NCBI RefSeq assembly: GCF_016584665.1
Contig: NZ_BBJB01000054.1
Location: 32,204 to 96,203 of the forward strand
Origin: Pseudanabaena sp. lw0831
Lineage (GTDB): Bacteria; Cyanobacteriota; Cyanobacteriia; Pseudanabaenales; Pseudanabaenaceae
DNA length: 64,000 nt
Direction: 5' to 3'
The position numbers and the translations under genes are program-made. The notes beneath the pieces were generated by a model. It was given only the letters and a program-made list of their open reading frames with translations, was not told where the DNA came from and searched no databases. Of this stretch, positions 5,049-58,054 are shown one piece after another (within the stretch, counting starts at the first letter, position 1; every line of letters starts with the position of its first letter).

Positions 5049-5054
5049 TTGGAT

Positions 5055-14435: not shown

Positions 14436-14523
14436 GTTTTTTAACGCTTTGCAATTATGACATAGTGAGGCACATTTGTTGCAAGTCAAAAAACAATATT
14501 TTTTTCTGGGCTAACATAGCTAA

Positions 14524-40226: not shown

Positions 40227-40271
40227 TAAAACAAAAAAAGGAGGTGCTTTGCACCTCCTTTTTTTGTTTTA
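40227..40271. terminator. 21-bp bidirectional terminator hairpin
   Basis: Arms 40227-40247 and 40251-40271 around TTT, core GGAGGTGC-TTT-GCACCTCC with A7/T7. It contains the stop of the minus-strand WecA-type gene (40269-40271). Confidence 0.85.
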
Positions 40272-41772: not shown

Positions 41773-44700
41773 CTAACGGACTTTTACTCTAAACCTCACA
41801 AATCCATAGGAGGTGGGAGGTGTTCCAGCGGCTGTAGCATTGGGGACAGCAGGGAAAGTGGGCGCTCCTGTGGTGCGGGTGACATTAACAGCCACAATAC
41901 CATTGGCATTGGTAGTAATTGAAACCACAGGATTATTAGGATCAGGGCATCGCTCTAGACCTGCCGAAGCAGGCACTTCGCCTAGGGCAGGATCGTAGTA
42001 TCGACCGCGATCGGGTACATCGTTAGCACCTGTTAGAAATCGGCGATCGCCTATAACCGTCCCTGTCTGCAAGACAATGCCTAGATCCACAGATGATCCG
42101 CCATCAGTGGGAGTAGAACCATTAAAAGCATTGGCTATAAAGCTGGTATTTGCAGGAACTGGATCGCAAATTCTTAAATTGCCTGCATTGCTTTGACCGC
42201 GATTTAAGTAATAGATTGTGTACTCTACGTCATCCTGAGGTCGAACATTAGGTTGACTGATCACTCCACGCAAAGAATCTGAGGTTGGACTTGGCCATCT
42301 AGCATCATTGTCATCTGTTCCAGGCCCATCGTCAAAACCAGTAATGTCGGTATTGTTGATTCGCGTAATTCGTTTCAACAAAACTACTTCAGGAGGTAAA
42401 GCGGTAGATGTGACAACTAAGTTCGCAGTTGCGGGCCCATTGGAAGTTGTCGTACCACCGCCAATAGTGGTTTGCAAGGTTGCTTGCACATTTGCAGTAG
42501 GAATAGTGTTGGTGTAAGTATTTGCAATAGAGGAGACCACATCGATCGCCGCAGTACAGGTCGTATTGAAAGGTAGCTCAAAGCCTTGCAAAGTGAAGGT
42601 TGTTTCTCCTCCACCCAATACTGGATTAAACACACCATTAGTACAAGTAGTTGTGGCATTAGGTGTACCTGCTACCCTCACGTTTGCTGGTAAGTCATCG
42701 GTAAAGCGGATATTGTTCAAAGGACCACCTAACTCGCCAGTAGTTTGACGGTTTTGGATGGTTACAGTCAGACGGCTAATCTGACCACCTGCAACCGAGC
42801 TTGGAAGAAAATCCTTGGAAACGTTAAGAGCAGGCAATGCGTTAAGGGTCGCTGATGCAGCGGCATTGTTAGTCGTACCCTCACGAGTAACGATGCTATT
42901 GGCTGGCAATGTATTGGTACGGTTACCTGCTGTATTCCGAGTAGTACGGATAGTGATCGTACAGGTTGCGCCAGCATTGAGAGTACCGTTGACTAAGCCA
43001 AATTCATTTACTCCCAAGGTTGCAGCACCCGCAAAACCTGCTGGTCTGGCAACACCTGGCAATAATACTGTGCCACCACAAGTAGTTGTGGCAGTAGGCG
43101 TAGGAAATACTAAAATTTCCGTAGCCATCGTGTCTACAAACGCCAAATTTGTCGCGGTAATACCACCCACACCAGGATTTTGGATCGTGATTGTTAAGAC
43201 CGAGGGATCGCCGACAGAGTTTAAAGCATTGGGGGCAAATGATTTGTTGATCGTCAAATCATTGATAACACGATTAAGGGTTCCGCTAATTGCTGCTGGG
43301 TTAGAGAAGCTTTGTGTAGTTGTAACAGAGTTTGGTGGCAAGGTGTTTGTAAAAGTTGCACCACCTGTACCATCAATCGTGACATCAAAGGATACTGTAC
43401 AAATCCCATCAACACCACCCACTGCTGCGGGTAACGTACCACCTGAGAAGGTAAATGTCCTAGCTGCGATCGCGCTAAAAGCACCACCTGCACAAGTAGT
43501 CTGAAAGTTAGGAACAGTCGCAATAATCGTATTCGTCTGCACCCAGCTATCCGTAAAGGTCAGATTAGTGAGAGCAATATCTTCTGTATTATTGAATTGA
43601 ATTGTGGCTCTGGATGTACCATTGGCACTTACAGAAGGAGATTGAAAGGTTTTCGTACCACTTAGGGGTGAAATCACTACTAAGTTAGCAGTAGGCAGAG
43701 TGGCTGGCTCACCTTCATTATTACTAAACGCGGTGGGAGTATTGCTATAGGTTTGGGGAGTTGGGAAGTTGGCAAAGGTTTGATCTATCTCAATTACATC
43801 AAATCGAAGTAGGCAGCTAGCACTAGCAGCAATACCACCTCCAGTGAGGGAAACACTCGTACTACCCGCAATTGGTGTAAACGTTCCACCGCAAGTATTG
43901 GATGAGTTAGGAGGAGTGGCAACTTGTAAATTAGCAGGTAGCGGATCAGTGATTGCTACATTCGTGAGAGGTTCCGCTACACCCGCCAGACTGCGGCGGT
44001 TATTGGTGATCGTAATGGTTACTTGAGAAGGTCTACCACGACCAACTGGTGTGGGATTAAAGACCTTAGCAACGTTAACCCGCGAAGCTGCTGTCAGCCT
44101 GCCTTCAGTGACAGTTACACCATTGCTATCTAACCCTTCATTATTATTAATAGAGTTATTGGGAATAATGTTGTCAAAGGTAGTACCTACAGGAGTACCT
44201 AATGGAGCAAAGACATCAAAGAAGAAATCGCAATTCGCTCCCGCTGCGATCGTTCCGCCAGACAAGCTAACCGAAGTACTACCTGCGGTTGCTGTAAGTG
44301 TTGGCGCACCACAGTTAGTAGAGGTGGGATTTGGGGAGGTCGCAACCACTAATTGCTGTCCACCGCCTGTTGGTAAGTTGTCGGTATAACTCACTCCTGT
44401 GGCTGCAATTGGCGATCGGTTGGTAACTCTGATCCTCACTCTAGTAGTGCTTCCAGGCGCAATTACGGGAGGAATATAAGTCTTGGCAACATTAAGTCCC
44501 GCAATTACAGTAAAGGGATCGGTAGCATCAGTGGGCGGTACACGTCCTTCAGCGTTACTAAAGTCTGTGGTGCGATTAATCGTATTAGTCGCGGCATTTC
44601 CCACTTCAGGATTAGGAAGACTAGCGATCGCCCCAATCCGCGCTCGGACATCCACTAGTATTTGGCAACTACCCAACGTATTAGTAACAGGATCAGACGC

Positions 44701-45966
44701 AGGTACTATCGCTGCCGCGCCTAAATTAGCAGTGTTAAGAGTAAAGGTATTAGCCCCAGCAGTGGGTTGAGTTGCCCAAGGTGTAGGTGCTCCACCCGCA
44801 ATACAAGTAGTTCTTGCATTCGGTGTCGGGGCAATTTCTAGGAGTGCTGGCAAAGGATCGGTGACAACTAAACCCGTAATCTGAGCACCACCGTTAGTCA
44901 CTGTAATTGTGATTGTCTGAATGTTTCCTTCAGGCATATTATTAGGCAGACCGCCCTTAGTTATATTAACTGCGGTCTGCACGGTAAGCGTAGCGCTGGG
45001 AACGTTGCTATTGCTGATCCGATTCTGGGTGTTTAGGGTATTAACGGGAATAGTATTTGTGTAAGTTCCACCGACGGCAGAGGTGACAGGGAAGGTAATC
45101 GTACAATTTCCATTAGCAGGAATTGTACCGCCCGTGAGCTGAATTGAGGTGTCACCCGCTATGCTGCTAGCAGTCCCGCCCGCACAAGTAGTAGTTGGTA
45201 GTGGAGCACCCCCGCGGGTATCTACAAACAGTTGCGAAGGTGCGGCTGGTAAGGCATCAACTAAAGTGGGTGGAACGGTTGTCCCAGTAAGGGGGAAGTT
45301 GTTGGGGTTTGTTACTGTAATCGTGACTAGCGATCGACCATCCCCAGGAATAGTATTGGGAGCAAAAGCTTTATTGAGAGTAGCCGCAGCAAAAGTGCGA
45401 ACCTGAAGAGTGGCACTGGTAGGATCGGCGTTTGTACCAACACTGGTTACCAAATCACCAGTATTAATTGTGTCGGTATGGTTGCCAGAAACAAATCCTC
45501 GAACGGGAAATTCGATAAAGCATTGCCCAGGTGCACCCGCAGGGATCGTAAATCCAGCAATGCTATAGGAACCTGATGTACCACCGCCGCCGCCAGAGGC
45601 AGGTTCAGTACCAGCGATAAGATTCACAGTCCCAGCACCACCACAGGTATTTGCAGTAGGTGTAGCACTCGTTATGGTGATTGGACCAGGAGCACCAACT
45701 AAGGTATGGTTCAGCGATGTGATCGTGATTGCTGCACCTGTGGAGTTTCGCAAAGTCACGCGATAGACTGAGTCTGAGCCAGGAATAACATTGTTATTGG
45801 GAGTAAAACTATTCAGAATCGCGATCTGGGAGGATGCTTGGGCAAAGGATGGTGGAGGTAGCAGCCACAGGTGCTGTGTGATCGCAAAGACAAAGCTCAG
45901 AAGAAATAGGCTAAAGTTTCGTAGAAGCCGATTGAAAGCAGGGATTGGGGTAAATGTTCTCCTCAT
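41773..45966 (-). CDS. Large exported DUF11-type repeat protein
   Basis: 1397 residues. A signal peptide (LLRNFSLFLLSFVFAITQHL, cleavage after about 42) is followed by eight repeats of about 130 residues, then a different C-terminal domain. Each repeat starts like NKAFAPNTIPGDGRSLVTIT and contains a Cys near TTC.GG and another in GGTIPANGNCTI, probably one disulfide per repeat; DUF7933/DUF11-like beta-sandwiches are the best match. The C-terminal part begins VVLLKRITRINNTDITGFDD and reads as a DUF11 domain. Probably a surface stalk or adhesin. Seven nt behind the beta-helix gene, so in the same operon. It has an ATG at 45966. Confidence 0.85.
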   Translation of the reverse strand: MRRTFTPIPAFNRLLRNFSLFLLSFVFAITQHLWLLPPPSFAQASSQIAILNSFTPNNNVIPGSDSVYRVTLRNSTGAAITITSLNHTLVGAPGPITITSATPTANTCGGAGTVNLIAGTEPASGGGGGTSGSYSIAGFTIPAGAPGQCFIEFPVRGFVSGNHTDTINTGDLVTSVGTNADPTSATLQVRTFAAATLNKAFAPNTIPGDGRSLVTITVTNPNNFPLTGTTVPPTLVDALPAAPSQLFVDTRGGAPLPTTTCAGGTASSIAGDTSIQLTGGTIPANGNCTITFPVTSAVGGTYTNTIPVNTLNTQNRISNSNVPSATLTVQTAVNITKGGLPNNMPEGNIQTITITVTNGGAQITGLVVTDPLPALLEIAPTPNARTTCIAGGAPTPWATQPTAGANTFTLNTANLGAAAIVPASDPVTNTLGSCQILVDVRARIGAIASLPNPEVGNAATNTINRTTDFSNAEGRVPPTDATDPFTVIAGLNVAKTYIPPVIAPGSTTRVRIRVTNRSPIAATGVSYTDNLPTGGGQQLVVATSPNPTSTNCGAPTLTATAGSTSVSLSGGTIAAGANCDFFFDVFAPLGTPVGTTFDNIIPNNSINNNEGLDSNGVTVTEGRLTAASRVNVAKVFNPTPVGRGRPSQVTITITNNRRSLAGVAEPLTNVAITDPLPANLQVATPPNSSNTCGGTFTPIAGSTSVSLTGGGIAASASCLLRFDVIEIDQTFANFPTPQTYSNTPTAFSNNEGEPATLPTANLVVISPLSGTKTFQSPSVSANGTSRATIQFNNTEDIALTNLTFTDSWVQTNTIIATVPNFQTTCAGGAFSAIAARTFTFSGGTLPAAVGGVDGICTVSFDVTIDGTGGATFTNTLPPNSVTTTQSFSNPAAISGTLNRVINDLTINKSFAPNALNSVGDPSVLTITIQNPGVGGITATNLAFVDTMATEILVFPTPTATTTCGGTVLLPGVARPAGFAGAATLGVNEFGLVNGTLNAGATCTITIRTTRNTAGNRTNTLPANSIVTREGTTNNAAASATLNALPALNVSKDFLPSSVAGGQISRLTVTIQNRQTTGELGGPLNNIRFTDDLPANVRVAGTPNATTTCTNGVFNPVLGGGETTFTLQGFELPFNTTCTAAIDVVSSIANTYTNTIPTANVQATLQTTIGGGTTTSNGPATANLVVTSTALPPEVVLLKRITRINNTDITGFDDGPGTDDNDARWPSPTSDSLRGVISQPNVRPQDDVEYTIYYLNRGQSNAGNLRICDPVPANTSFIANAFNGSTPTDGGSSVDLGIVLQTGTVIGDRRFLTGANDVPDRGRYYDPALGEVPASAGLERCPDPNNPVVSITTNANGIVAVNVTRTTGAPTFPAVPNATAAGTPPTSYGFVRFRVKVR

Positions 45967-45972
45967 GATCTA

Positions 45973-48048
45973 TTAGTTTCCTTTTCCTTCGATTTGAATG
46001 TCGTCCTGTTGGTCTAGTAGCTGAATTTCCACCCCTTGCATATTTTGGAGGAAGAATTCTACTCGCCGATCGCGAGCGTAATTAGTGATGTTATTTTGAT
46101 TGGTTAGCCTTTGGCGCTCTCCAAGGGTGCGAATGGTGATCCGTTCTGAGCCTATCCCCTGACGGCGTAGATAGTTACTGACGGATCGGCTACGCCTTAA
46201 TCCTAAATCTAAGTTGTAGGCATCATTGGCTCTAGGGTCAGTATGTCCGACTAACTCAACAGAGATTGTGGGATATTGCTTGAGGACTACTACGAATTTG
46301 TCGATGATCTTGGCAGAGATAGGACTGATGAAATCTTTATCGAGGGCAAAGTGAACTTGGCGTGGCAGTTGCAAAGCTGCTGGCGGCTCTGGTGGAGTCT
46401 CGACAATGACTGGTGGAGGAGTCGTGCATTGTGGCTGAGAGCGGGTTTCGGGCGGAGAAGCTGGAATTGGGGTATTGAGATCACTAATGCGCACGGGGCG
46501 AGCAGGCTCCGATGTGCCAAATTCAAGATCAGTTGCGATCGCGCTGAGGGTATCGCCGACTTTAAGGTTATTTAGACTAGTACTGAAGTTACCTTTAGCA
46601 TCAGTTTTGAGCGTGGTCAGCAACTCATATAAACCACCACCCCGCAATCGATAGAGATCAATTTCTGTATTGGGGTCAGCGATGCCATCGATGCCGACCT
46701 TGCCGTCAATGCGATTAAATCGATCTGCCCGAAATTCTGGAGCATCGATCGCCCCATTAGCCGTATCAACTCGCCGAAAATGGGAGTCACGTTTAGGGTT
46801 ACGTCCATCACCTGTGCGGAAATCCCGTTCACTGACATTGCGACGAGAGATTAAATCAATATCTAAACCTTCAATGAATTGAAATTGATTTTGACGAATC
46901 AAATTGCGATCGCTAGCAGGAAAAGCTGCCACGGTTACACCCGATCCCGCTTGATTACTAATGCGATTATTGCTAACGATATGTCCGCGTCCCATTAAAT
47001 AAATAGCAGAGCGGCGAAAGAAACGGGCGTTAAAACTCACAGTATTATCTTGAACCTTAATTGCACCTTCAGGCTTAAATAAAAATACCGCCGAACCTGC
47101 ATTGCCACAAATAATATTTGATCGCACCTGCATTCCCGCAATTCTTCCTTCAAGCCGAATTGCATCAGGCATTCCATCAAAACCATTACCTTCAATTACA
47201 TTCTCTTGAATGATGGAGTCTCTGGTATCAACGGCGGTAATAATGCCACTGCCTTCATGGTTAGCAATCCGATTCCGACGAATATTTGCCTCAATGCCAT
47301 GAAACAGATATACCCCAAAAGCAGAAGGCTGAGATGGCATCGACCCATCGGGCGGAATCCCTAGCCAGTTATTTTCGATCGTCACACGATAAGCAGGGCG
47401 ATCTCGATCGTAAAAGGAAAAGTCTTGAGCGGGTTGCTGCTGCTGCGTAGTATCTGGTGGCGGCAAGCGATGGGAAATGAAGATATCGCCTAGAGGAGTA
47501 ACAGCAGTTTCAAAGTGCCGCGAGGTAAATCCGTAGATGCTCAGACCACGAATTAAGACATCATCACTGGTGATGGTCAAACCTCGGAAAATTTCGGCTC
47601 CAGCAGCAGGAGTAATCGTTACTACTGGGACTGGGATCGAAATTTCTTGGGCAAAGCTTGTTTCTTCTTTGTAGGCGGGATGAGTTGTCCCATCGATCGC
47701 CATTGGCACAAGTAGGGAAGGCAAAGCACTTGTTAGCTGAATCTTGGGAATCTCAAGATTTTGAAATTGAATCTGGTGGCGACCTTGACGGGGTACAACT
47801 TGACCAAGTTCAGCAGGAGTGAGTTGATCGGTGCGGAGAGTACCATTGGCGATCAGAATCGCCTCACGCAGAGTCAGTTCGCGATCGCGCAGATTATCAT
47901 CACGATTGCTATTAACGTTGAGCGTTAGAAATGGTGATGATGGGGATTTTTCTGATGATGTCTGCGCTTGAGCGATCAATTGTTCACTTAGAAACAAAGA
48001 TAGAAACTCTGCCATCATCAAAATAGCGAGGGTAAGTCTTCTCTTCAT
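45973..48048 (-). CDS. Exported beta-helix protein with C-terminal OmpA domain
   Basis: Signal peptide at 1-29, then a right-handed parallel beta-helix (about 120-400: NNWLGI, RRNRIANHEGSGIITAV, RSNIICGNAGSAVFLF). A CNA-type linker (about 450-530) and a Pro-rich spacer come next. Residues about 570-685 form an OmpA/MotB peptidoglycan-binding domain: VELVGHTDPRANDAYNLDL, RRSRSVSNYLRRQGI. The ATG overlaps the stop of the preceding gene by 4 nt (48045-48048), so translation is coupled. It probably anchors to the wall while the helix binds a partner. Confidence 0.85.
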   Translation of the reverse strand: MKRRLTLAILMMAEFLSLFLSEQLIAQAQTSSEKSPSSPFLTLNVNSNRDDNLRDRELTLREAILIANGTLRTDQLTPAELGQVVPRQGRHQIQFQNLEIPKIQLTSALPSLLVPMAIDGTTHPAYKEETSFAQEISIPVPVVTITPAAGAEIFRGLTITSDDVLIRGLSIYGFTSRHFETAVTPLGDIFISHRLPPPDTTQQQQPAQDFSFYDRDRPAYRVTIENNWLGIPPDGSMPSQPSAFGVYLFHGIEANIRRNRIANHEGSGIITAVDTRDSIIQENVIEGNGFDGMPDAIRLEGRIAGMQVRSNIICGNAGSAVFLFKPEGAIKVQDNTVSFNARFFRRSAIYLMGRGHIVSNNRISNQAGSGVTVAAFPASDRNLIRQNQFQFIEGLDIDLISRRNVSERDFRTGDGRNPKRDSHFRRVDTANGAIDAPEFRADRFNRIDGKVGIDGIADPNTEIDLYRLRGGGLYELLTTLKTDAKGNFSTSLNNLKVGDTLSAIATDLEFGTSEPARPVRISDLNTPIPASPPETRSQPQCTTPPPVIVETPPEPPAALQLPRQVHFALDKDFISPISAKIIDKFVVVLKQYPTISVELVGHTDPRANDAYNLDLGLRRSRSVSNYLRRQGIGSERITIRTLGERQRLTNQNNITNYARDRRVEFFLQNMQGVEIQLLDQQDDIQIEGKGN

Positions 48049-51000
48049 GGTTTGCCCTCTTCAAATAGTTCAGGTCGGATAATTTCGCCGCGTAGTTCAG
48101 GTTGATTCTCGTTAAGCGATCGCAACAGAGCCGTCAGCACATCGCGATCGCGATTGAGCAGGAAGTTCAAGGCTGACACTAAACGGCGGGTATTCGAGTC
48201 GCGTTTAGAATCGTCAGCAATTAAATCAGGCTGTCTCTCAGGCGCTGCATTAGGATCAGGCAACAAGAGAGAAAGGATTTGAGATGAAGGAATAAATGAC
48301 CAACGCGGTGCAGTTTCAGGTGATGGGAAACTAGATAGGAAAGTTGAGAAGTTAGTTGATAGCAGAGCTGGTTGAGCTTGCGGTTCTAACAGCATCGTTA
48401 GCAGTTGCGGACTAGGTAATAATCCTAGAATCTGGCGGCTATAGTTCTCAGGGGCAAGAAGTTGACTGAGTAAAGAGGATGGGGTTATTCCCAAACTCGG
48501 TAGATTTAGACTAAGACGATTATCGTTATTTTGTTGCGCGATCGTTTTCGCAGGTGTGGAACCGTTAGGCAATTGGGCGATCGGTACTCCTTCCAAATTT
48601 GCAAGGGTGAGTGTAATACTATTGGCGGTATTGCTATTTGCAGTATCGCTATTTGCAGGACTAATCAGAATGCGATCGCTCGCGATGCCCTTTTGAATTA
48701 GATAGCTGCGTAGTCCCATCAAACGATTGACCTCAAGCTCCGAGCCATCAAGATTACCTTGCAACTCGACTGCTACCTCTGGGTCATTGACAATTCGACT
48801 AATCAACAAATCAAGATTGGCATTGCTAGGATCGGTCATTTTGCCAACTGGAGCAAACTCAATCCGTTGTGAGATAGCTTGAACTCGCAGAGGGCTAGAA
48901 GCAACTGGTGAATTAGCAGATACGCTAGACAAGTCGTTAGGTAGGACATTCTGAAGAATACTACTGCCATTGCCTTGCTTAATCCGATCTGATATTTGCG
49001 TAAAGGTCTCTCTTGTGCCGCCGAGAGCAAGAAGAACTTGGGGCTTATCGTCAATTTCTGGAGCACCCAGCGATCGCATCGTAATCCGACTACCATCAAT
49101 GCCTTGGCGGAGCAAATACGCACGCACTTTACTCAGTCTCTGAGCATCAGGACTATTCGCACTTACCTCAGTGAGCGATGCTAAACGACCATGCACATCA
49201 ATATTAAGAGCAGGATATTCTCGTAAGACCGTTACTAAGTTATCCAAAACCACTTGGTTAATCGGTGACAAATTAATTTGAGATTTTGGAAATTCTACGG
49301 GCTGAGCAAGCGACACTCTGACTACTTCAGACAGATTACTAGGAACCGATGCTGTCGTAGTACCAGCTTTCTTCGGATTAACGGGTAATTCAATGGCGAC
49401 GCTAGGATCGAGCGGTTCTTTCTGCTGCGGTGGCGCAATCTTCTGTAGCCCAAATCCATCAAATAGTTCATTGAGCTTGAATGTTACCGCTGCATAAATT
49501 CCACCTGCTGAGCGTGTGCCGCTGAAATCGCGGTCATTATTCACTGCACCTGAACTATAGCCCAGAGCAAAGCGCAAGTTGGGTGTAGCATAGTAACCGA
49601 GTTCAGTAACAAAGCCAACTTCATTAAATCCTGCGGTCGGTTGGTTGATCAATCTGCCCTCAGCTGTGAGATCGAAGTTATAGCCAAGTCGATAGGTAGC
49701 ACGCAACTGTGCCAAATTAATCGCCGATGTTCCAATTAAGTCCTGTGCCAAGTAGGAAGTATTATTGCGCAAAGCATATTTCCCATAAAATTCCCATTGC
49801 CAGTTTGGAGAATAGATTGCTTCGAGCGCTAGAACATGCTCTTCTGAGCCTGAGCCAATACCACCAATAAAGCTTTCAGGAATACTGCTAGGGTTTTGGC
49901 GATATTCATAGCGTAATAGAGCATTAAGGGCATCATTAGCAGGATCTCGATAGGCTAATCCCAAACGTAAACTAGAGGTATCTCCAAAATTGTTAATCGT
50001 TTGGTTAGCAATTCCCGATCGCTGATAACGCAGTAGCCCAGTGAGCGAAGGGCTGATCTTACCGAGTGCCGAAGCATTAATAACTGAGTTTGCACCAGCT
50101 GAAGATATCCGATATTCATAACGCGCACTTGCTTTAAAATCAGGGTTGTCGGTATATTCAAAGCCAATGTTGTAGTTATCGCCACTTTGAAGCGCAAGGG
50201 AAGAAGTATTAGAGCCAGTGGTTAGAGGCTGTAACACCTGCGTCACTCCCGCCGAATTCTGAACTTGGTCATTTCCAAAAATCCGTTCGTAACCGAACTC
50301 AACTCTTAACCCTGGGGCAATTACTAAACGCTGATTTAAGCCGATCGCTCCTTGGGTGGTGGTCGTATTTGCGCCACCCACCAAAGTGTATCGTCCCGAA
50401 AGAGTGGTGTCGGGGAATACTTTATAATTGCCCACAACTTCGCCAGTAGTAAAACTGCTGCCAGCAAGCACACCGCTACTAAACCATTGCTGTCCTACTC
50501 GTAAACTAATACCTTCAATTACCTGCCAATCCAGAACTAGGGCTGTACGGTCAGGCAGAATGGTGTCAGGCGAGTTAGATAGACTAATTTCATTCTGAGC
50601 AATAAATTTTAAATTGTCGAGAATTGGCACAGTTAAACGCGATCTCAATTGGCTAGAAGCGCCAGAGAACGTCATGTTTAAGTTGTCTTGGCGGTCTCGC
50701 AATAGAAAGTCGAGTTCAGCAGTTGCCGAACCCAGCTTTTGTAGAACTCCCAGACTAAATGTGCTGAGCTGGTTGTCAACGGGAGTGCCTGGCGTAGATT
50801 GAGGATTGAGGTTGAGGAAGCTACTAAGCGTGAATGGCTGAGGAGCGACACCACGATTCTCTTCCCGCTCATAGGAAGCCCTGATCGTAGTAGCATCGGA
50901 AATCTTCGCATCAATATTTAGCCCTAACCTTGTCTGTCCTGGAACAAAACTAATCGTGGCATTGTTGACAAAACCAGTATCCGTTTGGCGATAGAAAGCC

Positions 51001-53033
51001 TTAGCGATAATTCCCTCTACAAATTCGCTAACTGCTTCAAATCGAAAAGCAGAACCAGAGACAGGTGCAGACAAGTCACTGGAGTTATTTTGCGATCGCG
51101 CATATTCTGCAATCAGATAAGAATCTTTGCCAAAGGAAACTAGAGCATTAGCTCCATAAAGCTGAAAGTCACGAGCTCCTTGATTTTCTTTAAAGTAATT
51201 AACGCCTAACCAACTCTCTGCGCCAAGCTCGCGACCGAAGTGATAACGCAACTGACCTGCATAGATACTATTGTTATTACTACCGTTGCTAGTGCCACCT
51301 TCATTGTCATATTCATAGGAGACAATAATGCGTCTAACGAGGGTTTCACCACCTGAGCCGATATCAGTTTGGAGAATTGGTTGGCGAAATTGCAGAGAAC
51401 CGCGATCATAGTCAATCTCATAGTCTTGACTGCGATTAAGCTTGACGCGGCGCACAATATTTCCAGGGCGCAACAGCTCTTCTGATTCGATAAATACATT
51501 TTCACTACCAGGCGTGACTAACCTCCGAGCGAGAAAGAAGAAGCCACTTGTGCCATCGGGAGGGATAATATCCCGCTGAAATCCTCGTGTAGTACTGCTG
51601 TAAAGCCCTGTAGCTTGCAAATCGCCAAAGTTATAGTTGAACTTTAGTCCATTGAACTGTCGGGTAAAAGCTGTGAATTCTTGAGAACGACTGGCAAATT
51701 CTTCGGTACGGAAGTCTCCCCACATTAAGAAATCAGTACCTGCATTAGGCACAGGAGAAGTGCGCTCCGCTCTCAAAAAGATACTAGTTAAAGAGGGTGT
51801 CTCAGTAGTTAAAGTTGAGCTATCTCCATAGACAGGATAATTTTGTTTGCAAAACTGAATATCTCGAAATAGTCGGCTTCTACCTTCGCAATCTTCGTTA
51901 AGAGTCCGACGGGTATTAAATGCTCCCGTGATCAGCCATTCTCCAACTTTGCCCGTCCCAAAGGCTGCTGCATAAAAATCAACATTAGTGGAATTATTGC
52001 CGTCAGTAGGCAAGAAATCTCGAAAGCTTCGATAGAAATCAGTGCCTCTTGCTCCTATCCGAAAATCAACTACCCCAGTGAGGATCGAAGGGCGCAGGTT
52101 AGTTTCTAGTTGCAGTTGGGTAAAGGCTTCAACTTCGAGATTATTAATTACGGAGCTGGCTCGAATGATAGCATTACCAGAAGTAAGCCCAGAGCGCAGG
52201 AGTGCAGTAAATTGACCTTCTCTTGCCTCTACTTGAAAGCCTGGTTGATCGGGTCGAGCATCATTTCCTATAAATTCACCTTCACTAGCGGTAAGGGTCA
52301 CAACGGCACTACGATTAGAGCGATCGCCTTTTTCGTCTAATAATAAACCCTGTACCGTGGCAGTAGTTCGACCATCGGCGGGAATACGAGACTCTAGTGT
52401 GCTTACTTGAATTTTTGTCGCCGCCCCACGCAAGCGCACTGCCACACTTTGACTAACATCACTACCAACTAACTTAGCGGTAATCTTGTTCTCACCTTCA
52501 TTTAGAGCCACACCATACCAAGTTTGGGTGACGATGCCCGCATTAGTATCAACCTCAGAACGACCAATCGCATTCGCATCTACCTTTCTACCATTAACTG
52601 ATAGTTCCACTTCCGTACCAACGGGAATCCGTAAAATGACCGTAGTTGCGGGGACATCCATCAGAGATTGGTTCGCAGGTGAAAGAATTGTTACTTGTGA
52701 GGTAACTTGATCTTTCTTTACTGTGGGAGGAACTTGTGGTGGTTCAGGAGTTGCCGAACTGTTCTCTGGTTGATTATTGGTTTGGACTGCGATTTGTAAC
52801 GCTGGTTGGTTACTTGTGAGGTTTGGTATGGGGGTTTGTTTAAGGTTTGAGTCAGTTGCTAGCGAGAGTTGATCGACCTCATGAGTAGATTCTTCTAACG
52901 ATCTTGCGTCATCGACAACGGAATTGTTTGAGGCGATTGCACTAGATGCGGTCATGCCTAGCCACAAACCTAGGAAGCCGAGCAAATGCAAACACAATTG
53001 AGATTTTAGTTTGGCTTTAGATACAGATTTCAT
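48045..53033 (-). CDS. Giant predicted outer-membrane beta-barrel protein with OmpA-like domains
   Basis: 1662 residues. A signal peptide (about 1-35) precedes an Ig-like part (about 115-320). Residues about 330-1230 alternate amphipathic strands (YAAAFGTGKVGEWLITGAFN; LRYHFGRELGAESWLGVNYF; LRATYRLGYNFDLTAEGRLI), typical of a large outer-membrane barrel; RSQDYEIDYDRGSLQFRQPI is a recurring motif of such barrels. Two OmpA-like regions follow (VLDNLVTVLREYPALNIDVH; RIVNDPEVAVELQGNLDG), then a proline/leucine-rich tail. Its start overlaps the upstream gene by 1 nt. A pore or assembly platform is the likely role; family name not certain. Confidence 0.8.
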   Translation of the reverse strand: MKSVSKAKLKSQLCLHLLGFLGLWLGMTASSAIASNNSVVDDARSLEESTHEVDQLSLATDSNLKQTPIPNLTSNQPALQIAVQTNNQPENSSATPEPPQVPPTVKKDQVTSQVTILSPANQSLMDVPATTVILRIPVGTEVELSVNGRKVDANAIGRSEVDTNAGIVTQTWYGVALNEGENKITAKLVGSDVSQSVAVRLRGAATKIQVSTLESRIPADGRTTATVQGLLLDEKGDRSNRSAVVTLTASEGEFIGNDARPDQPGFQVEAREGQFTALLRSGLTSGNAIIRASSVINNLEVEAFTQLQLETNLRPSILTGVVDFRIGARGTDFYRSFRDFLPTDGNNSTNVDFYAAAFGTGKVGEWLITGAFNTRRTLNEDCEGRSRLFRDIQFCKQNYPVYGDSSTLTTETPSLTSIFLRAERTSPVPNAGTDFLMWGDFRTEEFASRSQEFTAFTRQFNGLKFNYNFGDLQATGLYSSTTRGFQRDIIPPDGTSGFFFLARRLVTPGSENVFIESEELLRPGNIVRRVKLNRSQDYEIDYDRGSLQFRQPILQTDIGSGGETLVRRIIVSYEYDNEGGTSNGSNNNSIYAGQLRYHFGRELGAESWLGVNYFKENQGARDFQLYGANALVSFGKDSYLIAEYARSQNNSSDLSAPVSGSAFRFEAVSEFVEGIIAKAFYRQTDTGFVNNATISFVPGQTRLGLNIDAKISDATTIRASYEREENRGVAPQPFTLSSFLNLNPQSTPGTPVDNQLSTFSLGVLQKLGSATAELDFLLRDRQDNLNMTFSGASSQLRSRLTVPILDNLKFIAQNEISLSNSPDTILPDRTALVLDWQVIEGISLRVGQQWFSSGVLAGSSFTTGEVVGNYKVFPDTTLSGRYTLVGGANTTTTQGAIGLNQRLVIAPGLRVEFGYERIFGNDQVQNSAGVTQVLQPLTTGSNTSSLALQSGDNYNIGFEYTDNPDFKASARYEYRISSAGANSVINASALGKISPSLTGLLRYQRSGIANQTINNFGDTSSLRLGLAYRDPANDALNALLRYEYRQNPSSIPESFIGGIGSGSEEHVLALEAIYSPNWQWEFYGKYALRNNTSYLAQDLIGTSAINLAQLRATYRLGYNFDLTAEGRLINQPTAGFNEVGFVTELGYYATPNLRFALGYSSGAVNNDRDFSGTRSAGGIYAAVTFKLNELFDGFGLQKIAPPQQKEPLDPSVAIELPVNPKKAGTTTASVPSNLSEVVRVSLAQPVEFPKSQINLSPINQVVLDNLVTVLREYPALNIDVHGRLASLTEVSANSPDAQRLSKVRAYLLRQGIDGSRITMRSLGAPEIDDKPQVLLALGGTRETFTQISDRIKQGNGSSILQNVLPNDLSSVSANSPVASSPLRVQAISQRIEFAPVGKMTDPSNANLDLLISRIVNDPEVAVELQGNLDGSELEVNRLMGLRSYLIQKGIASDRILISPANSDTANSNTANSITLTLANLEGVPIAQLPNGSTPAKTIAQQNNDNRLSLNLPSLGITPSSLLSQLLAPENYSRQILGLLPSPQLLTMLLEPQAQPALLSTNFSTFLSSFPSPETAPRWSFIPSSQILSLLLPDPNAAPERQPDLIADDSKRDSNTRRLVSALNFLLNRDRDVLTALLRSLNENQPELRGEIIRPELFEEGKP

Positions 53034-54538
53034 TATTGTTGCCCTCCAACACCTTTAAATGCTGGAGTTACCGCGAAATTTGCTCTAGCCAAGCCACCTG
53101 GGGATAGGCGCACAAGTCGAGACTGACTGTTGCGTTCGATAAAGTATAAGTTGGGAGCTAGGGTATACCCTGACAAAGAACTTATATCTAACACCAAAGT
53201 ACGAGCACCTGGAATGACATTGGCAACTGAATATAGTCCATTTGCATCAGTAACAATACGATTGCCATCATCCATAAACACTACAGCATCAGGAATCCCT
53301 GGTTCACCGCTCTGCTGTTCTCCATCAAAATTTTTATCCACAAATACTCTTCCAATTAAAGTGGCACAATCAGAAACGATGCCAGGACGGATTCGCATCG
53401 TAAAAAGGGCGGGACCATCGCGAACGGTATAATTGTTATCGGCTCTAATTGCCGAGACCGCAGCAGAATTTCGACCAGTTCCCCTCACAGCATCGGGAGT
53501 AACAGTGACTGCATAGGCAACCAAAGCACTTACATTGCCAGCAGGTATTTGTGCTTGAATCGCAAAGGACAAGTTATTACCATTTTCCTGAACTACAACT
53601 GGGACTAAATTCCCATTAACAGAAGCCCTTGCAGAATTTTGTACATATCGCAATCCGATCGGTAGAGAATCTGTAATAACTGGATTGATTAATGTCGTAG
53701 TTGTAAGATTTTTGATCGTCAGACGATAGGATGCAATATCTCCTGGCTCAGCAGCAGCCCGATCGCCTGTTTTGATAATTTGAACCTCGCGGGCTTCGCA
53801 CACGGACAAAGCTGAATTAAGTTGCAACGCAATTAGCGACAAAGCATTTTGGGCAGCATTGTTGATAACTACATTCTCCGTAACCGAGAAAACCCCATCT
53901 ATCCCGATCGGTCTACCGTCTACGGCTGTCGCGGTATAAGGTAAAAGAAGTCCATTCTGTGTGCCAATTACGATCCGAATTCGACGTTGTCCGAGCGCGA
54001 GATTAGTAGGTGGATTCACAACCAAGATATAGGTGCTGCCTGCGGCTCTTTGCGCTCCATTTAACAAAAAATTATATATACCACGTCTGCCATTTACTGC
54101 CGCATTAGTGATCGAGTATGGATTGACGTTTAAGATATTAGGGGCAAGCCCTTCGGGTAGGACTGTATTTGGCGGATTAGTCGGGGTTAAGGCAATAGGA
54201 GCACCGATTTCGCCACCACTGCCAACAGCTTGATATAAACCCACAGTAAAGCCAGTGTAATCAGCAAACTCATTACCAGCACAATCGAGTATCTGTCCTA
54301 GAGGATCGATGAGGCGATCGCCATTAATAGTATTTAAGGGCGAAGAAACTTGAACTGGAGTAGCTACACCTGGAGTGCCATAGCTACCGCTTGCGCGATT
54401 TTGAATTCCAAAGTTTCGCGCTTGACCGTAAGCAGCGCCATTCGCTAAGCAAAGACATAACGCTAAACTTCCCAGCCATAACCAGAAAAAGAAAGCATAT
54501 CGCTTTATTATTTTTTTGAGCGATCGCATATTCATCAA
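53033..54538 (-). CDS. Exported DUF11 protein with SdrD-B-like domain
   Basis: Signal peptide at about 14-39 (FFFWLWLGSLALCLCLANGA). A domain of about 200 residues is followed by a DUF11 domain (about 255-375: VQIIKTGDRAAAEPGDIASY) and a carboxypeptidase-regulatory/SdrD-B-like fold (about 392-465: IGRVFVDKNFDGEQQSGEPG). The C-terminus reads ARANFAVTPAFKG. Overlaps the barrel gene by 1 nt. Starts MMNMRSLKKIIKRY; any of the first Met residues could be used. Probably cell-surface partner of the barrel. Confidence 0.82.
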   Translation of the reverse strand: MMNMRSLKKIIKRYAFFFWLWLGSLALCLCLANGAAYGQARNFGIQNRASGSYGTPGVATPVQVSSPLNTINGDRLIDPLGQILDCAGNEFADYTGFTVGLYQAVGSGGEIGAPIALTPTNPPNTVLPEGLAPNILNVNPYSITNAAVNGRRGIYNFLLNGAQRAAGSTYILVVNPPTNLALGQRRIRIVIGTQNGLLLPYTATAVDGRPIGIDGVFSVTENVVINNAAQNALSLIALQLNSALSVCEAREVQIIKTGDRAAAEPGDIASYRLTIKNLTTTTLINPVITDSLPIGLRYVQNSARASVNGNLVPVVVQENGNNLSFAIQAQIPAGNVSALVAYAVTVTPDAVRGTGRNSAAVSAIRADNNYTVRDGPALFTMRIRPGIVSDCATLIGRVFVDKNFDGEQQSGEPGIPDAVVFMDDGNRIVTDANGLYSVANVIPGARTLVLDISSLSGYTLAPNLYFIERNSQSRLVRLSPGGLARANFAVTPAFKGVGGQQ

Positions 54539-54587
54539 AGTTCCATCACTCTAGATATTCTATCGGAATAAATCAGTTTTAATCATG

Positions 54588-54626
54588 GGTGATGATGCAC
54601 CGTGCAAAGCACGGTGCATCATCACC
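54588..54626 (-). terminator. 18-bp hairpin after the small DUF11 gene
   Basis: GGTGATGATGCACCGTGC pairs with its mirror around AAA. It lies 4 nt past the stop of the 193-residue gene and 50 nt before the next start, so it may partly terminate or separate transcripts inside the cluster. Confidence 0.7.
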
Positions 54627-54630
54627 TCAA

Positions 54631-55212
54631 CTACTTAACACGGACTTGATAAGCCACCATCATCTTAGAATTCGCTGGTAAAGCTTCTCCAAAATCCCAG
54701 CGTACATGGGTATAGGCATCGGCTGGGGCGGGACGCTCTTCGATCCTGCCACCACGAAGACGTACTCGAACAATTGGTTGAGTCGAAAAAGTTTTACTGC
54801 CATCAATACTAAATTCCAATTTAGCACCTGAGGTATTTAACGCAGTTGCAGATTGGATGATGTAGACCATTCCATTGGGAATCTGCTGAATCACCGTAAG
54901 ATTACGCATATTTCGACTAGTGTTATTCTTCGCTGTCACTGTGTAGCGCAAAACACTGCCAGGAATTACTTGGGAATTAGAAGGTAGGGCATTCCAAGAA
55001 ATTTTTTCTTTGCCTGATTCATCACGGCTGATTTGGCGTTTTTCGGCTGCTAATAATAATTCCACAGGTTGCTGCTGTTGAGCTACCCGCGAATCCGATT
55101 CAGAAACGTTAGTAGAACTATTGTTACTTGCGATCGCAGTAGACAATAGCAACATAGGTAGTATCACAGCACCAAGAGCTAGATACAATGGTTTAATTTC
55201 AAATTTTTTCAT
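54631..55212 (-). CDS. Exported DUF11-domain protein
   Basis: 193 residues: signal peptide (LYLALGAVILPMLLLSTAIA), a Ser/Asn/Gln-rich spacer with QQQQPVELLLAAEKRQISRD, then one DUF11 domain (NSQVIPGSVLRYTVTAKNNT through MMVAYQVRVK). Small secreted component of the cluster, maybe a subunit or cap. ATG at 55212. Confidence 0.82.
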   Translation of the reverse strand: MKKFEIKPLYLALGAVILPMLLLSTAIASNNSSTNVSESDSRVAQQQQPVELLLAAEKRQISRDESGKEKISWNALPSNSQVIPGSVLRYTVTAKNNTSRNMRNLTVIQQIPNGMVYIIQSATALNTSGAKLEFSIDGSKTFSTQPIVRVRLRGGRIEERPAPADAYTHVRWDFGEALPANSKMMVAYQVRVK

Positions 55213-55296
55213 AATAGGCTCCTAAACTTCGATAAATTCTCATCAGTCTGTCTATATCTAAAAAAGAATTGACTCTCTTTTCATGATCTATATAGG

Positions 55297-55329
55297 GATT
55301 TTCAATTTGTTTATGACAAATTGAAAATC
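55297..55329 (-). promoter_or_regulatory. Hairpin between cluster genes 1 and 2
   Basis: GATTTTCAATTTGT and its mirror, a perfect 14-bp stem with a 5-nt loop. It lies downstream of the overlapping hairpins at 55354-55417 in the direction of transcription. Confidence 0.55.
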
Positions 55330-55353
55330 CAAAGACTTTAATGAGCTTAATTT

Positions 55354-55417
55354 CCCATTTACAACTGAGGCTATGCTCATTTGTAAATGGGCATAGCCTC
55401 AGTTGCTATTGCAACTG
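55354..55417 (-). promoter_or_regulatory. Overlapping, mutually exclusive hairpins at the end of cluster gene 1
   Basis: Three stems share bases: CCCATTTACAA with TTGTAAATGGG (55354-55391), CAACTGAGGCTATGC with its mirror (55362-55405), and CAGTTGC with GCAACTG (55400-55417). They cannot all form together. The first two use the same arm bases, as in attenuator switches. The stop codon of the 899-residue gene (55406-55408) lies in the third. Confidence 0.5.
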
Positions 55418-58054
55418 ACGATGGAAGCGTAAAACGCCTTGTAAGATAGCTGGATTAGTTGCAGGTTGAATCGTGCCGACATTATTTACATAAGTCGTGA
55501 TCGCAGTTCCTGTAGCTGGGTCTGGAATGGCTGCACCATCATAAGTAACAGAGCCTTGTGACGCAAAGGTGTTTTGAGGAAATCCACCAACCACTGCGGG
55601 ATTGTTGAAGTGTAACGATACCCCTGCCCAGTTGTTCACTCCAGTTGCGCCATTTTCTGTAATCACCAAATTCGCAGCATCTAGGACTACGCTACCTGCG
55701 CCAGCAGCAGCTAGAGGTGTTGAGAAGTTGACATACTCAACCACATAGCGAACTATATTGCCTGGTTCTGCGGTCTTGGCTGTTTCATCAAGTGTGCCAT
55801 TTGCGGCGGTAACAGCGCGAGGATTAGTGCCTTGCAACACTTGAGACTGCTTCCGCAATCTTACATAACCTGTATAACCGCGATCGATTGTGATGTTAAA
55901 GATCGGATCATTCAAGGCTAAAAAGCCTCCACTGTTATCGTTATCCACAAAAGCAACAATCGGCACATTAAATCCTGCTCGATCGGCTCCATTTGCAATG
56001 AAACGGTCAACGGATAGAAGTGTATTCTGAGGTCCAGGAGGTAAATCAAGCGAGACAGTATAGTTATTCAGGACATTAGGCGCTAGAGCGTTGACCAGAA
56101 TGCTTGGCGTCGGGCTAACAGGCAATCCAGAACTTAATCCTACGTTGAGAACATAGCCACCTGCTGCTGTATAATCATAAACCGCGATCTGGGTTCCAAA
56201 AGTAATCGTTACTCTAGAGCCATCGGGAATATCTGCGGCTGGCTGTTGTGAAACACCTGGTACAGATGCATTGTTTGGAGGCAATGGCAACAGGCGGACT
56301 GTATCTAGGTTGGTTGTGTTGCTGGGCGGATTTTGGAACGTGTTGTTAAAAATAATCGGTGGTGGATCATACGCAACGACTTGTCCAGGGACTGACTCTG
56401 GCGCTGTCAAGCCAGTGGAACGATTTGTAAAGTCATCTTGGTTAGTCGTACTTGGTCCGATCGCACCAGGGACATTGTTTGGTCCATTGAGAATGCCGCC
56501 TGCTGGAACAATTGGGAAAATGTTGACTTCCCCACCAGGTCCTGTACCTGTGTTGTTGTTATTTGGATCTGTACTTTGGGTGGCTGGATTGGGTACACCA
56601 TTATCTGTAGCAGGGGTGAATAATGTACCTTCAGGGGCTGGAGGGGTGACTCCTTCAAAGTTGTTGGGGTTTTGGTCACCTGATTCGTCATAGACCACGC
56701 GATTGGTGGGATCACCTACGGTTTCCCCAAACACTTGGGAAATATTATTAATCACACCACCTGTTGCTGGGGGCAGTCCAGTTGTAATTACCCTGAATTG
56801 GAAAGCGTTAGCAACTAACTCAGTAGTAAAGCCTGGAGCAAGTATCCCTGTAAAAATATAGCCAACACGGACAACATTCGGTGCAGTCCCAGCAGTTGGA
56901 GCGGTAGTTGACCACGCTGCGGCTGGCAAGGCTCCTGGGGCTGTACTGACGACGGGAATAGTACCTGCGGCGGTCGCTGTATATTGATAGACTGCTTGCC
57001 AACCCGCTGGTAAATTTAAGGCTGCATCAAATGTTTCGTCAATTCTTGTTTGTGCAGGAATCACGTCAGAAACTAAGATACGGGTTTGGGCTACAAGATC
57101 AACATTAACTGTGGTTCCTTCGAGGTTCGCTGGGGTAAATTGGGCAGGAACTGGCGATGTGGTGGCTACTCTTAAATTTAGACGATAGGTAAGGCGATCG
57201 TCCGTCACTGCGTTTGTAGGGCCTGGATCGTAAGCAGTTCTTGCCTTTAGGGCAGTAGCTAAGGCTATGTTGCGAACAGCAGTAGCAACCGTGGTTGCTT
57301 GAATTGCGGCAGCTTCGCGCTCACCATTAACAGGTGCATCAGGACCAACGTTAACAGTGCGAACTTCATTAGCATTCGTACCGTCAGCGCCTACGGCAGG
57401 AGGCTCAAGGCCAGAGTCTGGTTGGTTTTGAGTGCCCGCAGTGTTGTCATTGGCTCCAGTATTACCCAATTGGACGCTGACAGGTGCGCCAGCGGCTCCT
57501 GCTGTTACCGTGCCAACAACTCTGACTCGCACAGAGCTACCCGCAGGAATTGGTGTGGTGGTGGTAAATGCTCCAGCTTGTAAAGCTTCACCAGCATCTA
57601 GAAAATCGCCATCATTATTGAGATCTAGTTGATACTGCAATGTACCAGCGTTTAGACCTACAGTTGTAATATTCGCAACTGCTGGGAAGACAATATTGCT
57701 AGGAGCATTTCCTGTATTCGTAACTAAAAAGTCAAAGTTAAGTACGTCATTGAGAGCGACACTACCACCGTTGACATCGATAATCCCCGCAGGTACATTT
57801 GTAATACCTGCTACCTCTGCAACAGTTACTGTAACGGTGTTGGAAGTAGCGTTAATGGGTGTGCCAGGATTATTTGGATCTACATAAGTACCTGATGCGC
57901 GGTTGAGGATTGCTGTATTTGCTGGCGTTGGCGGCACAACCTGAGCTATTACAAGGTACGGAAATAAAGATGACATCCCACTTATTGTCAATGTCGCTGC
58001 TATCAACCGATAGAACGAAGTTCCTTTAATAGCTTTTTTGTTAATGTTAAACAT
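55406..58054 (-). CDS. Exported DUF11-type protein, first gene of the surface cluster
   Basis: Signal peptide (IAATLTISGMSSLFPYLVIA) followed by Pro/Thr/Asn-rich beta-sandwich domains: TAILNRASGTYVDPNNPG, PAGIIDVNGGSVALNDVLNF (DUF11-like, about 75-215), further repeats through 700 and LRKQSQVLQGTNPRAVTAANG near the end. It contains Asp/Asn repeats (DLNNDGDFLDAGEAL) suggestive of calcium binding. I use the ATG at 58054; a TTG at 58105 adds 17 residues. Ends in TAG. Confidence 0.82.
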   Translation of the reverse strand: MFNINKKAIKGTSFYRLIAATLTISGMSSLFPYLVIAQVVPPTPANTAILNRASGTYVDPNNPGTPINATSNTVTVTVAEVAGITNVPAGIIDVNGGSVALNDVLNFDFLVTNTGNAPSNIVFPAVANITTVGLNAGTLQYQLDLNNDGDFLDAGEALQAGAFTTTTPIPAGSSVRVRVVGTVTAGAAGAPVSVQLGNTGANDNTAGTQNQPDSGLEPPAVGADGTNANEVRTVNVGPDAPVNGEREAAAIQATTVATAVRNIALATALKARTAYDPGPTNAVTDDRLTYRLNLRVATTSPVPAQFTPANLEGTTVNVDLVAQTRILVSDVIPAQTRIDETFDAALNLPAGWQAVYQYTATAAGTIPVVSTAPGALPAAAWSTTAPTAGTAPNVVRVGYIFTGILAPGFTTELVANAFQFRVITTGLPPATGGVINNISQVFGETVGDPTNRVVYDESGDQNPNNFEGVTPPAPEGTLFTPATDNGVPNPATQSTDPNNNNTGTGPGGEVNIFPIVPAGGILNGPNNVPGAIGPSTTNQDDFTNRSTGLTAPESVPGQVVAYDPPPIIFNNTFQNPPSNTTNLDTVRLLPLPPNNASVPGVSQQPAADIPDGSRVTITFGTQIAVYDYTAAGGYVLNVGLSSGLPVSPTPSILVNALAPNVLNNYTVSLDLPPGPQNTLLSVDRFIANGADRAGFNVPIVAFVDNDNSGGFLALNDPIFNITIDRGYTGYVRLRKQSQVLQGTNPRAVTAANGTLDETAKTAEPGNIVRYVVEYVNFSTPLAAAGAGSVVLDAANLVITENGATGVNNWAGVSLHFNNPAVVGGFPQNTFASQGSVTYDGAAIPDPATGTAITTYVNNVGTIQPATNPAILQGVLRFHRQLQ

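What the first reader, a model, noticed from the sequence alone, without database searches (positions are those of the whole stretch)
41773..58054. Six-gene exported-protein cluster: candidate uncharacterised envelope or surface-fibre system
Six consecutive minus-strand genes all encode exported proteins. Their start/stop spacings (4-nt overlap at 48045, 1-nt overlap at 53033, 6 nt at 45967) show that at least the last four are one operon. Parts: a 1662-residue predicted barrel with OmpA-like domains, a beta-helix/OmpA protein, and four DUF11-type repeat proteins of 193 to 1397 residues. A barrel, wall anchors and Cys-paired stalk repeats made together suggest a dedicated machine that exports and anchors surface fibres. 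No such system is known to me under a standard name.
Basis: partly seen in the sequence, partly recalled or inferred. Interest (0 to 1): 0.85.

Follow-up and report, generated by a model that had tools for sequence, protein, structure and literature searches.

The report
Giant-barrel surface-fibre export system
Some cyanobacteria carry a conserved gene set for a predicted giant outer-membrane barrel and its partners, which would likely export or anchor surface fibres marked by one shared tail-end domain; in the 291 genomes compared, that tail domain was strong in exactly the 31 genomes where the barrel was strong and in none of the others.

Summary
In detail: six adjacent minus-strand genes (F-E-D-C-B-A, 58054 to 41773) encode predicted exported proteins. 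In 69 of 71 related cyanobacterial loci with enough flank the order F-E-D-C is kept, and D sits beside barrel C at all 37 strong places in 291 genomes. The D+C pair recurs, split or fused, in Proteobacteria. C (two Ig-like domains, about 40 predicted strands) gave no TonB, usher, SprA, LptD or Omp85 profile match. Main new result: protein A and its counterparts downstream of C have mostly unrelated bodies (16.8% of pairs align over 70% of the length) but end in one ~190-residue C-terminal domain (95.4%). That domain is strong in the same 31 of 291 genomes as C and in none of 27 other genomes with DUF11 proteins. Eight of eight F-E-D-C loci lacking a neighbouring tagged gene have one elsewhere in the genome. 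I infer a dedicated export/anchoring system for isopeptide-stabilised (CLIPPER/DUF11) fibres, with the C-terminal domain as docking or sorting signal; it works like type IX secretion but met no membership test by sequence. Export itself is untested.

The parts
55406..58054 (-). Gene F: exported all-beta protein with a DUF7925 (CnaA-like, predicted isopeptide) domain; first gene of the cluster (TTG start at 58105 also possible)
   Evidence: model pLDDT 77.7, chains of Ig-like domains; 27 of 27 DUF7925 places in 291 genomes lie upstream of a C barrel
56657..57262 (-). DUF7925 domain of F; predicted isopeptide Lys/Asp/Asn conserved 37/37, 37/37, 36/37
   Evidence: a Lys-Asp-Asn triad is given for DUF7925 in PMC12617251 (passages); that these columns are that triad is my reading
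54631..55212 (-). Gene E: small exported single-DUF11 protein; weak resemblance to the DUF11 core of the client C-terminal domain
   Evidence: (12.7 bits)
53033..54538 (-). Gene D: exported adaptor, DUF11 + SdrD_B, just upstream of barrel C; fused to it or to a giant stalk elsewhere
   Evidence: 37 of 37 strong places next to C
53159..53785 (-). D core (DUF11 + SdrD_B), the part conserved across phyla
48045..53033 (-). Gene C: predicted giant outer-membrane barrel protein (relatives often annotated TonB-dependent receptor)
52098..52646 (-). Two Ig-like domains before the barrel (invasin-D3/GH2-Ig like)
49476..52085 (-). Predicted barrel, about 40 long strands, with a small conserved beta insert at 51360-51542
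   Evidence: pLDDT 71.4, pTM 0.59; conserved columns
49056..49292 (-). Degenerate OmpA-like region of C
   Evidence: (17.5 bits, below cut-off)
45973..48048 (-). Gene B: beta-helix + OmpA, likely peptidoglycan anchor; optional in relatives
41773..45966 (-). Gene A: client (cargo) fibre protein with 8 DUF7933 stretches and the shared C-terminal domain; only hit of that domain in this genome
41776..42393 (-). Shared C-terminal domain of A (residues 1192-1397), 210.6 bits, ending at the last residue

Best explanation
The cluster encodes a predicted giant outer-membrane barrel (C) with a partner protein (D) that are likely a dedicated device for exporting and/or holding DUF11-type surface fibres, and its client protein A carries a conserved C-terminal domain that would be the docking or sorting signal. 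Shown: gene order, the conserved D-C pairing and fusions, and the co-occurrence of the C-terminal domain with the barrel, also when unlinked. Predicted from sequence and models: C is a very large barrel with two Ig-like domains on its N-side and a small beta insert; F, E and A are chains of Ig-like domains, several with isopeptide-bond residues. Inferred, in order: client proteins cross the inner membrane by Sec; the C-terminal domain brings them to the C-D complex; the stalk passes through or is held by the barrel, with D's SdrD_B core as the link between stalk and barrel; F and E form fixed parts of the base or stalk; B, where present, ties the device to peptidoglycan. Whether the C-terminal domain is removed, retained or cross-linked is unknown.
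For: F-E-D-C order in 69 of 71 loci with enough upstream flank. All 37 strong D places, in 31 of 291 genomes, are beside C (two of those C copies seen only). 27 of 27 DUF7925 places lie upstream of C. D and C are one polypeptide in P0148 and in the Acinetobacter locus; D's core is the C-terminal end of DUF11-type proteins of 3011 and at least 3330 residues whose stop overlaps the barrel start by 4 nt in Pelagibacterium and S. meliloti. Client slot: 66 of 74 downstream proteins (one of them the window's own) share the end; bodies align over 70% in 719 of 4290 ordered pairs, ends in 4091 of 4290. Of 100 public proteins found with the A end, 99 have the domain within 4 residues of the C-terminus. 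Strong C-terminal domain in the same 31 of 291 genomes as strong C; DUF11 proteins occur in 27 further genomes with neither at strong level. 8 of 8 F-E-D-C loci without a client in the downstream flank have one elsewhere. A complete F-E-D-C-client set lies on a Synechococcus NIES-970 plasmid. Independent precedent: a 49-DUF11-domain protein forms surface filaments in Litorilinea (PMC13319060, section 2.3), and DUF11 is an isopeptide stalk domain of fibrillar adhesins (PMC12617251, passages).
Against: No experiment that I saw shows export, surface exposure or a fibre for any member. The barrel model is of moderate quality (pLDDT 71.4, pTM 0.59), I could not inspect its coordinates, and its fold matches are weak and mixed, so a translocation pore is not shown. 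The C-terminal domain contains a DUF11 core (Pfam match in 35 of 39 members), so it could be an ordinary terminal stalk domain. Its profile was built from proteins next to C; the genome search scored at most 11 candidates per genome; counts are not corrected for shared ancestry. One of 10 genomes sent, with D-C-B only (L010), has no client, and a C-B locus without client in 10.8 kb (L008) was not followed. None of the 19 proteins taken from six non-cyanobacterial loci has a full match to the C-terminal domain, so it is not part of the D-C pair everywhere. In Thermus and Deinococcus the match to C lies mainly in the Ig-like stretch, so barrel kinship there is not established. B is not next to C in 43 of 62 loci.
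Confidence: 0.6

Rival explanations
1. A static envelope scaffold: C is a structural barrel and the DUF11-type proteins stay in the periplasm or form a layer that ties outer membrane to wall, with no export role.
For: OmpA domain in B and, in relatives, in C; B keeps a GHTD...R motif in 19 of 27; C's top, weak Foldseek match is the Deinococcus SlpA/SDBC envelope barrel.
Against: Clients reach 2217 residues in the cyanobacterial set, and relatives of 3011 and at least 3330 residues sit beside the barrel in alphaproteobacteria, too long as extended chains for a periplasm (inference). Client bodies are highly variable, as expected of surface proteins. B is often missing beside C.
Confidence: 0.2
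2. An usher-like pilus assembly line in which E (and F) are subunits polymerised through C.
For: C has N-terminal domains and a small beta insert early in the barrel, an arrangement recalled from ushers; FimD is among the fold matches; E is a small single-DUF11 protein beside D and C.
Against: No usher profile among the families shown for 25 barrels and no chaperone among the 10 window proteins scanned; the FimD match is loose (rmsd 17); E as a donor-strand subunit is untested.
Confidence: 0.12
3. A nutrient receptor of the TonB-dependent type, as many database entries name C.
For: Annotation of relatives (alphaproteobacterial records).
Against: No TonB_dep_Rec or plug profile in the window protein or among the families shown for 25 relatives; about 40 predicted strands instead of 22 (22 is recalled); partners are stalk-type proteins.
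Confidence: 0.04

Closest known systems
Type IX secretion (SprA translocon and C-terminal sorting domains), Bacteroidota
   Same: Very large barrel with diverse clients sharing one C-terminal Ig-like domain, linked or unlinked; SprA is among the weak fold matches.
   Different: No SprA or T9SS sorting-domain family match (B and C touch the T9SS PorE model only through their OmpA part, at 55.5 and 29.5 bits against a cut-off of 600); no named counterpart of D, E and F.
Autotransporters and two-partner secretion (type V)
   Same: Stalk-D-barrel in one chain (P0148, Acinetobacter) or as two coupled genes mimics passenger plus barrel.
   Different: The barrel is predicted at about 40 strands rather than 12 or 16 (recalled); no autotransporter or TpsB family among the Pfam matches shown, only a weak PDB profile hit to the EstA barrel (E 0.017).
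CLIPPER (DUF11) fibrillar adhesins and grappling-hook proteins GhpA/GhlA
   Same: Tandem DUF11-type domains forming stalks and filaments (PMC12617251 passages; PMC13319060 section 2.3).
   Different: The survey names Por_secre_tail, CHU_C and LPXTG as co-occurring anchors and the Litorilinea paper leaves GhlA's export open; no barrel or C-terminal domain of this kind is in the passages that I read.
Chaperone-usher pili
   Same: Dedicated outer-membrane barrel encoded beside Ig-like proteins.
   Different: No chaperone among the window proteins scanned, no usher profile, variable client instead of a fixed set of pilins.

Membership tests
TonB-dependent receptor | TonB_dep_Rec barrel and plug profiles | tested here: not met
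   No such Pfam match in window C at E<=0.01 or among the 25 of 26 families shown for 25 barrels at E<=0.1
TonB-dependent receptor | TonB-dependent substrate uptake | not testable with these tools
   needs an uptake assay
Type IX secretion system | SprA homologue by sequence profile | tested here: not met
   no SprA family match shown; no SprA chain among 19 PDB sequences at E<=10
Type IX secretion system | SprA-like fold of the barrel | tested here: inconclusive
   Foldseek 8gl6 E 6.9e-7, TM 0.15; other barrels rank similarly
Type IX secretion system | T9SS C-terminal sorting domain on clients | tested here: not met
   39 client ends scanned: no T9SS sorting family at E<=0.1; that those models are in the libraries is recalled
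Type IX secretion system | Diverse clients share one C-terminal domain and may be unlinked | tested here: met
Chaperone-usher pathway | usher profile and a periplasmic chaperone gene | tested here: not met
   no usher profile shown; no chaperone family among 10 window proteins scanned
Chaperone-usher pathway | usher-like fold | tested here: inconclusive
   [not shown]
Type V secretion | 12- or 16-strand translocator of a known family | tested here: not met
   about 40 long strands in a model of moderate confidence; no such family shown; strand numbers of type V are recalled
Type V secretion | passenger and barrel in one chain or coupled genes | tested here: met
   P0148, L138 fusion; Pelagibacterium and S. 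meliloti pairs; that the stalk is a passenger is inferred
CLIPPER fibrillar adhesin | exported protein with tandem isopeptide-type Ig domains | tested here: met
   A: 8 DUF7933 stretches + DUF11; DUF7933 and DUF7925 are predicted isopeptide families; signal peptide judged by eye
CLIPPER fibrillar adhesin | isopeptide bond formed | not testable with these tools
   candidate residues conserved; needs mass spectrometry
CLIPPER fibrillar adhesin | LPXTG at the C-terminus | tested here: not met
   A ends SYGFVRFRVKVR, no LPXTG or hydrophobic tail (sequence)

The most novel reading that the evidence does not exclude
A previously unrecognised outer-membrane secretion and anchoring system found from cyanobacteria to Proteobacteria, perhaps also Deinococcota: a ~40-strand barrel with a fused or partner SdrD_B adaptor displays CLIPPER fibres, and in cyanobacteria it evolved an exchangeable C-terminal tag (isopeptide- and disulfide-locked by its invariant Lys, Cys and Asp and near-invariant Asn), so that one machine can serve several unlinked, unrelated fibres.
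Probability: 0.42. Interest if true: 0.92.

Novelty: categorically new. Interest (0 to 1): 0.8.

Why it matters
How cyanobacteria and many other diderms put very long DUF11/CLIPPER adhesins on their surface has no settled answer that I know of outside known sorting systems. This gives a concrete candidate machine, a sequence tag that predicts its clients in a genome, and questions a widespread 'TonB-dependent receptor' label. If true it would be a further type of outer-membrane export or display, with a tag usable for surface display in cyanobacteria.

Tried and rejected
TonB receptor, usher, SprA, LptD and Omp85 identity for C: no profile match shown (19 PDB sequences at E<=10, 25 of 26 families shown); fold matches weak and mixed, no row standing clear. 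A link with the Acinetobacter fil genes (recalled) was followed with one paper search; the listing showed nothing on this gene order and I dropped it untested. Promoter and terminator scans were no better than shuffles. Papers opened for passages without use for the mechanism: PMC13297417 (a DUF11 signal peptide as secretion leader), PMC8343143 (word-start false hits), PMC8779699 (a table line on DR_0685, whose relation to L135 I did not test), PMC10787695 (DUF11 proteins of methanogens linked to cell aggregation, in line with a surface role). Novelty searches: (open-access papers only); no title or abstract start listed, nor passage read, describes this system. Two D copies first looked like orphans without C; their loci (L171, L172) have C, missed because one search scored two candidates in those genomes. 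Rows set aside in counts: C hits under 900 bits (G282, G032, G035, G047; G035 and G047 are real distant relatives at E 2e-57 and 1e-54) and C-terminal-domain hits under 79 bits (next below 38.8, the rest of a domain already counted in G060; best in a genome without strong C 33.3, G047). In the client list, L016, L049 and L127 were wrong ORFs picked by the script, L122 runs off its contig, L057, L125 and L126 have variant ends, L119 lacks this end.

Full report
WHAT IS THERE. The window (closest public proteins to C are named Pseudanabaena sp.) holds six adjacent minus-strand genes, here F, E, D, C, B, A in transcription order. Pfam gives DUF7925 for F, DUF11 for E, DUF11 + SdrD_B for D, beta-helix + OmpA for B, and eight DUF7933 stretches + DUF11 for A; C has only weak invasin-type Ig and OmpA matches. 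C is present once in its own genome.

CONSERVED SYNTENY. A scan of public genomes with C gave 131 relatives, of which the tool kept the best 80 loci, all cyanobacterial by record title. With profiles made from these loci, 69 of 71 loci with at least 6 kb upstream of C have F-E-D-C on one strand; the other two have D-C-B. Of 62 with at least 9 kb downstream, 19 have B next to C and 52 have a tagged client (see below) downstream. In an even draw of 291 genomes of the phylum, C is strong (over 900 bits) in 31 genomes, D is strong (over 230 bits) at 37 places in the same 31 genomes, and DUF7925 occurs at 27 places in 26 of them, each a few kb upstream of C on its strand. All 37 D places have C beside them: 35 by the coordinates, two after reading the loci. 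Five of the 31 have C and D but no DUF7925 hit. Of these, L125, L127, L128 and L130 show a short D (309-350 aa) and no F or E in the stretch read, so D+C looks like the minimal pair; the fifth, L132, keeps an F and an E by the session's own profiles. Many of these genomes are close kin and the counts are not corrected for that.

BEYOND CYANOBACTERIA. tblastn of the plasmid collection finds relatives in Alphaproteobacteria, Acinetobacter, Eleftheria, Thermus and Deinococcus. In Pelagibacterium and S. meliloti the barrel start overlaps by 4 nt the stop of proteins of 3011 and at least 3330 residues made of DUF11-type domains, and the cyanobacterial D profile matches their C-terminal ends (residues 2689-2918, E 1.5e-28; 3007-3237, E 3.4e-19), while the next protein matches barrel parts of C (E 2e-24 and 5e-25). 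In Acinetobacter haemolyticus plasmid p4 the D core and barrel are one 2008-residue protein followed by an OmpA protein and a DUF11 protein, the order D-C-B-A. P0148 is another D-C fusion. In Novosphingobium THN1, F-, E- and D-like genes (E 1.5e-11, 1.8e-9, 3.5e-14) precede a barrel that is in broken pieces in that record. Thermus HB8 and D. radiodurans have D-like proteins (E 3e-12, 2e-14) beside a long protein that matches C mainly in its Ig-like stretch (E 1.4e-16 and 4.4e-6); barrel kinship there is open. A distant family member occurs in Sericytochromatia-type genomes.

THE BARREL. AlphaFold2 on residues 130-1240 with 40 sequences gave pLDDT 71.4 and pTM 0.59: two Ig-like domains, then 40 strands of eight or more residues outside a small beta insert that follows the first eight, by my count of the DSSP line. 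Foldseek's best solved matches are weak (Deinococcus SlpA/SDBC 4e-8, SprA 7e-7, LptD, FimD; query TM-scores about 0.1-0.2), and the second aligner puts porins, FimD and GH2 Ig domains within one Z unit. A 25-row cross-phylum profile matches Ig parts of GH2 enzymes and invasin, and weakly TbuX and EstA, but no TonB receptor, usher, SprA, LptD or Omp85 chain; 25 barrels scanned singly show no such Pfam family among the 25 of 26 families listed. So 'giant barrel' is a prediction and its closest fold relative is open.

THE CLIENT SLOT AND ITS C-TERMINAL DOMAIN. Downstream of C (or C-B) there is usually a long exported protein whose domains differ: DUF11, DUF7933, LTD, SdrD_B, FlgD_ig and others (8 of 9 scanned have a DUF11-related domain, in two of them below the cut-off, 1 has no Pfam match). 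A script picked 74 slot proteins; 66, one of them the window's own, have the terminal motif. In an alignment of their last 400 residues the mean frequency of the commonest residue is 0.27-0.37 up to a sharp edge at LVKRIT, then 0.42-0.77 to the last residue. Outside that domain, 719 of 4290 ordered pairs align over 70% of the length; inside it 4091 of 4290 do; for comparison C, D, E and F sets of 60 give 91%, 100%, 98% and 100% of pairs. The domain is 1192-1397 in window A (210.6 bits). In 100 public proteins found by its sequence, 99 have it 0-4 residues from the C-terminus. It contains a DUF11 core (Pfam DUF11 in 35 of 39 rows) but no other known family covering it. Lys8, Cys77 and Asp78 are invariant in 39 rows, Asn163 is kept in 38, and 37 rows have exactly two cysteines; Lys-Asp-Asn is the isopeptide triad of DUF11 (PMC12617251 passages), so a locked fold is plausible but untested.

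GENOME-BY-GENOME TEST. The domain profile over the same 291 genomes gives 43 strong places (79 bits or more) in 31 genomes: exactly those with strong C. The best hit in any other genome is 33 bits, in G047, which has a distant C (at most 11 candidates scored per genome). DUF11 proteins occur in 58 of 291 genomes, all 31 with C plus 27 others, some in open frames of over 4000 residues, and none of the 27 has the domain at strong level. Naive Fisher p-values are 2e-42 and 4e-17; they ignore relatedness. Presence is patchy even inside one genus: in g14, G072, G127 and G243 have both, while G048, G064, G103 and G153 have neither at strong level. Of the 43 places, 42 lie near a C; one (G276) is on another contig, and that genome's locus has F-E-D-C and no client (L173). 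Ten of the 62 loci with enough downstream flank lack a client: eight F-E-D-C loci (seven of the Nostoc group, G276's among them, and Aliterella), L010 (D-C-B) and L008 (C-B at a contig start, not followed). All eight F-E-D-C genomes hold a strong client elsewhere; of the 10 genomes sent (these eight, L010 and L036), 9 had one and the Pseudanabaena frigida MAG of L010 had none. A complete F-E-D-C-client set sits on a 138-kb plasmid of Synechococcus sp. NIES-970, its client carrying the domain at 1859-2033 of 2033. The window's own genome has one client, A.

LIMITS. No experiment that I saw bears on any member directly. Signal peptides were judged by eye. The client profile was seeded from C's neighbours, though the genome-wide search was not so limited. 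Counts rest on bit-score cuts that I chose after seeing a wide gap. The 19 proteins checked from six non-cyanobacterial loci lack a full C-terminal domain of this kind, so the tag would be a cyanobacterial addition. Literature was searched only in open-access papers.

Noticed in passing
L134 (Thermus thermophilus HB8 pTT27) 647-14495; L135 (D. radiodurans pMP1) 5018-13227: Model organisms carry clusters of DUF11 proteins with a D-like core next to a long protein sharing C's Ig-like stretch; whether it is the same barrel is open.
   Followed up: partly
relatives of C, e.g. P0010, P0030, H10: Common database label 'TonB-dependent receptor' for proteins in which no TonB receptor profile was found for the members scanned.
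   Followed up: partly
L187 4538-20408 (Synechococcus sp. NIES-970 plasmid): Complete F-E-D-C-client module on a plasmid of a Picosynechococcus strain, near a mercuric reductase gene; suggests transfer of the whole module.
   Followed up: partly
L186 (Novosphingobium sp. THN1 plasmid) 2202-11211: F-, E- and D-like genes before a barrel that is in broken pieces; whether decay or assembly error is unknown.
   Followed up: no
[not shown]
   Followed up: no
window 40269-41369: WecA/MraY-type glycosyltransferase-4 gene follows the cluster and is also near it in L004 and L007.
   Followed up: no
L119 (G047 C6, same phylum, other class): Divergent C in two open frames with a short D-like gene and a 1623-residue protein right after C that lacks the cyanobacterial C-terminal domain.
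   Followed up: no
G282:C1:1210746-1210883: Short match to C with two TGA inside, possibly a decayed copy.
   Followed up: no
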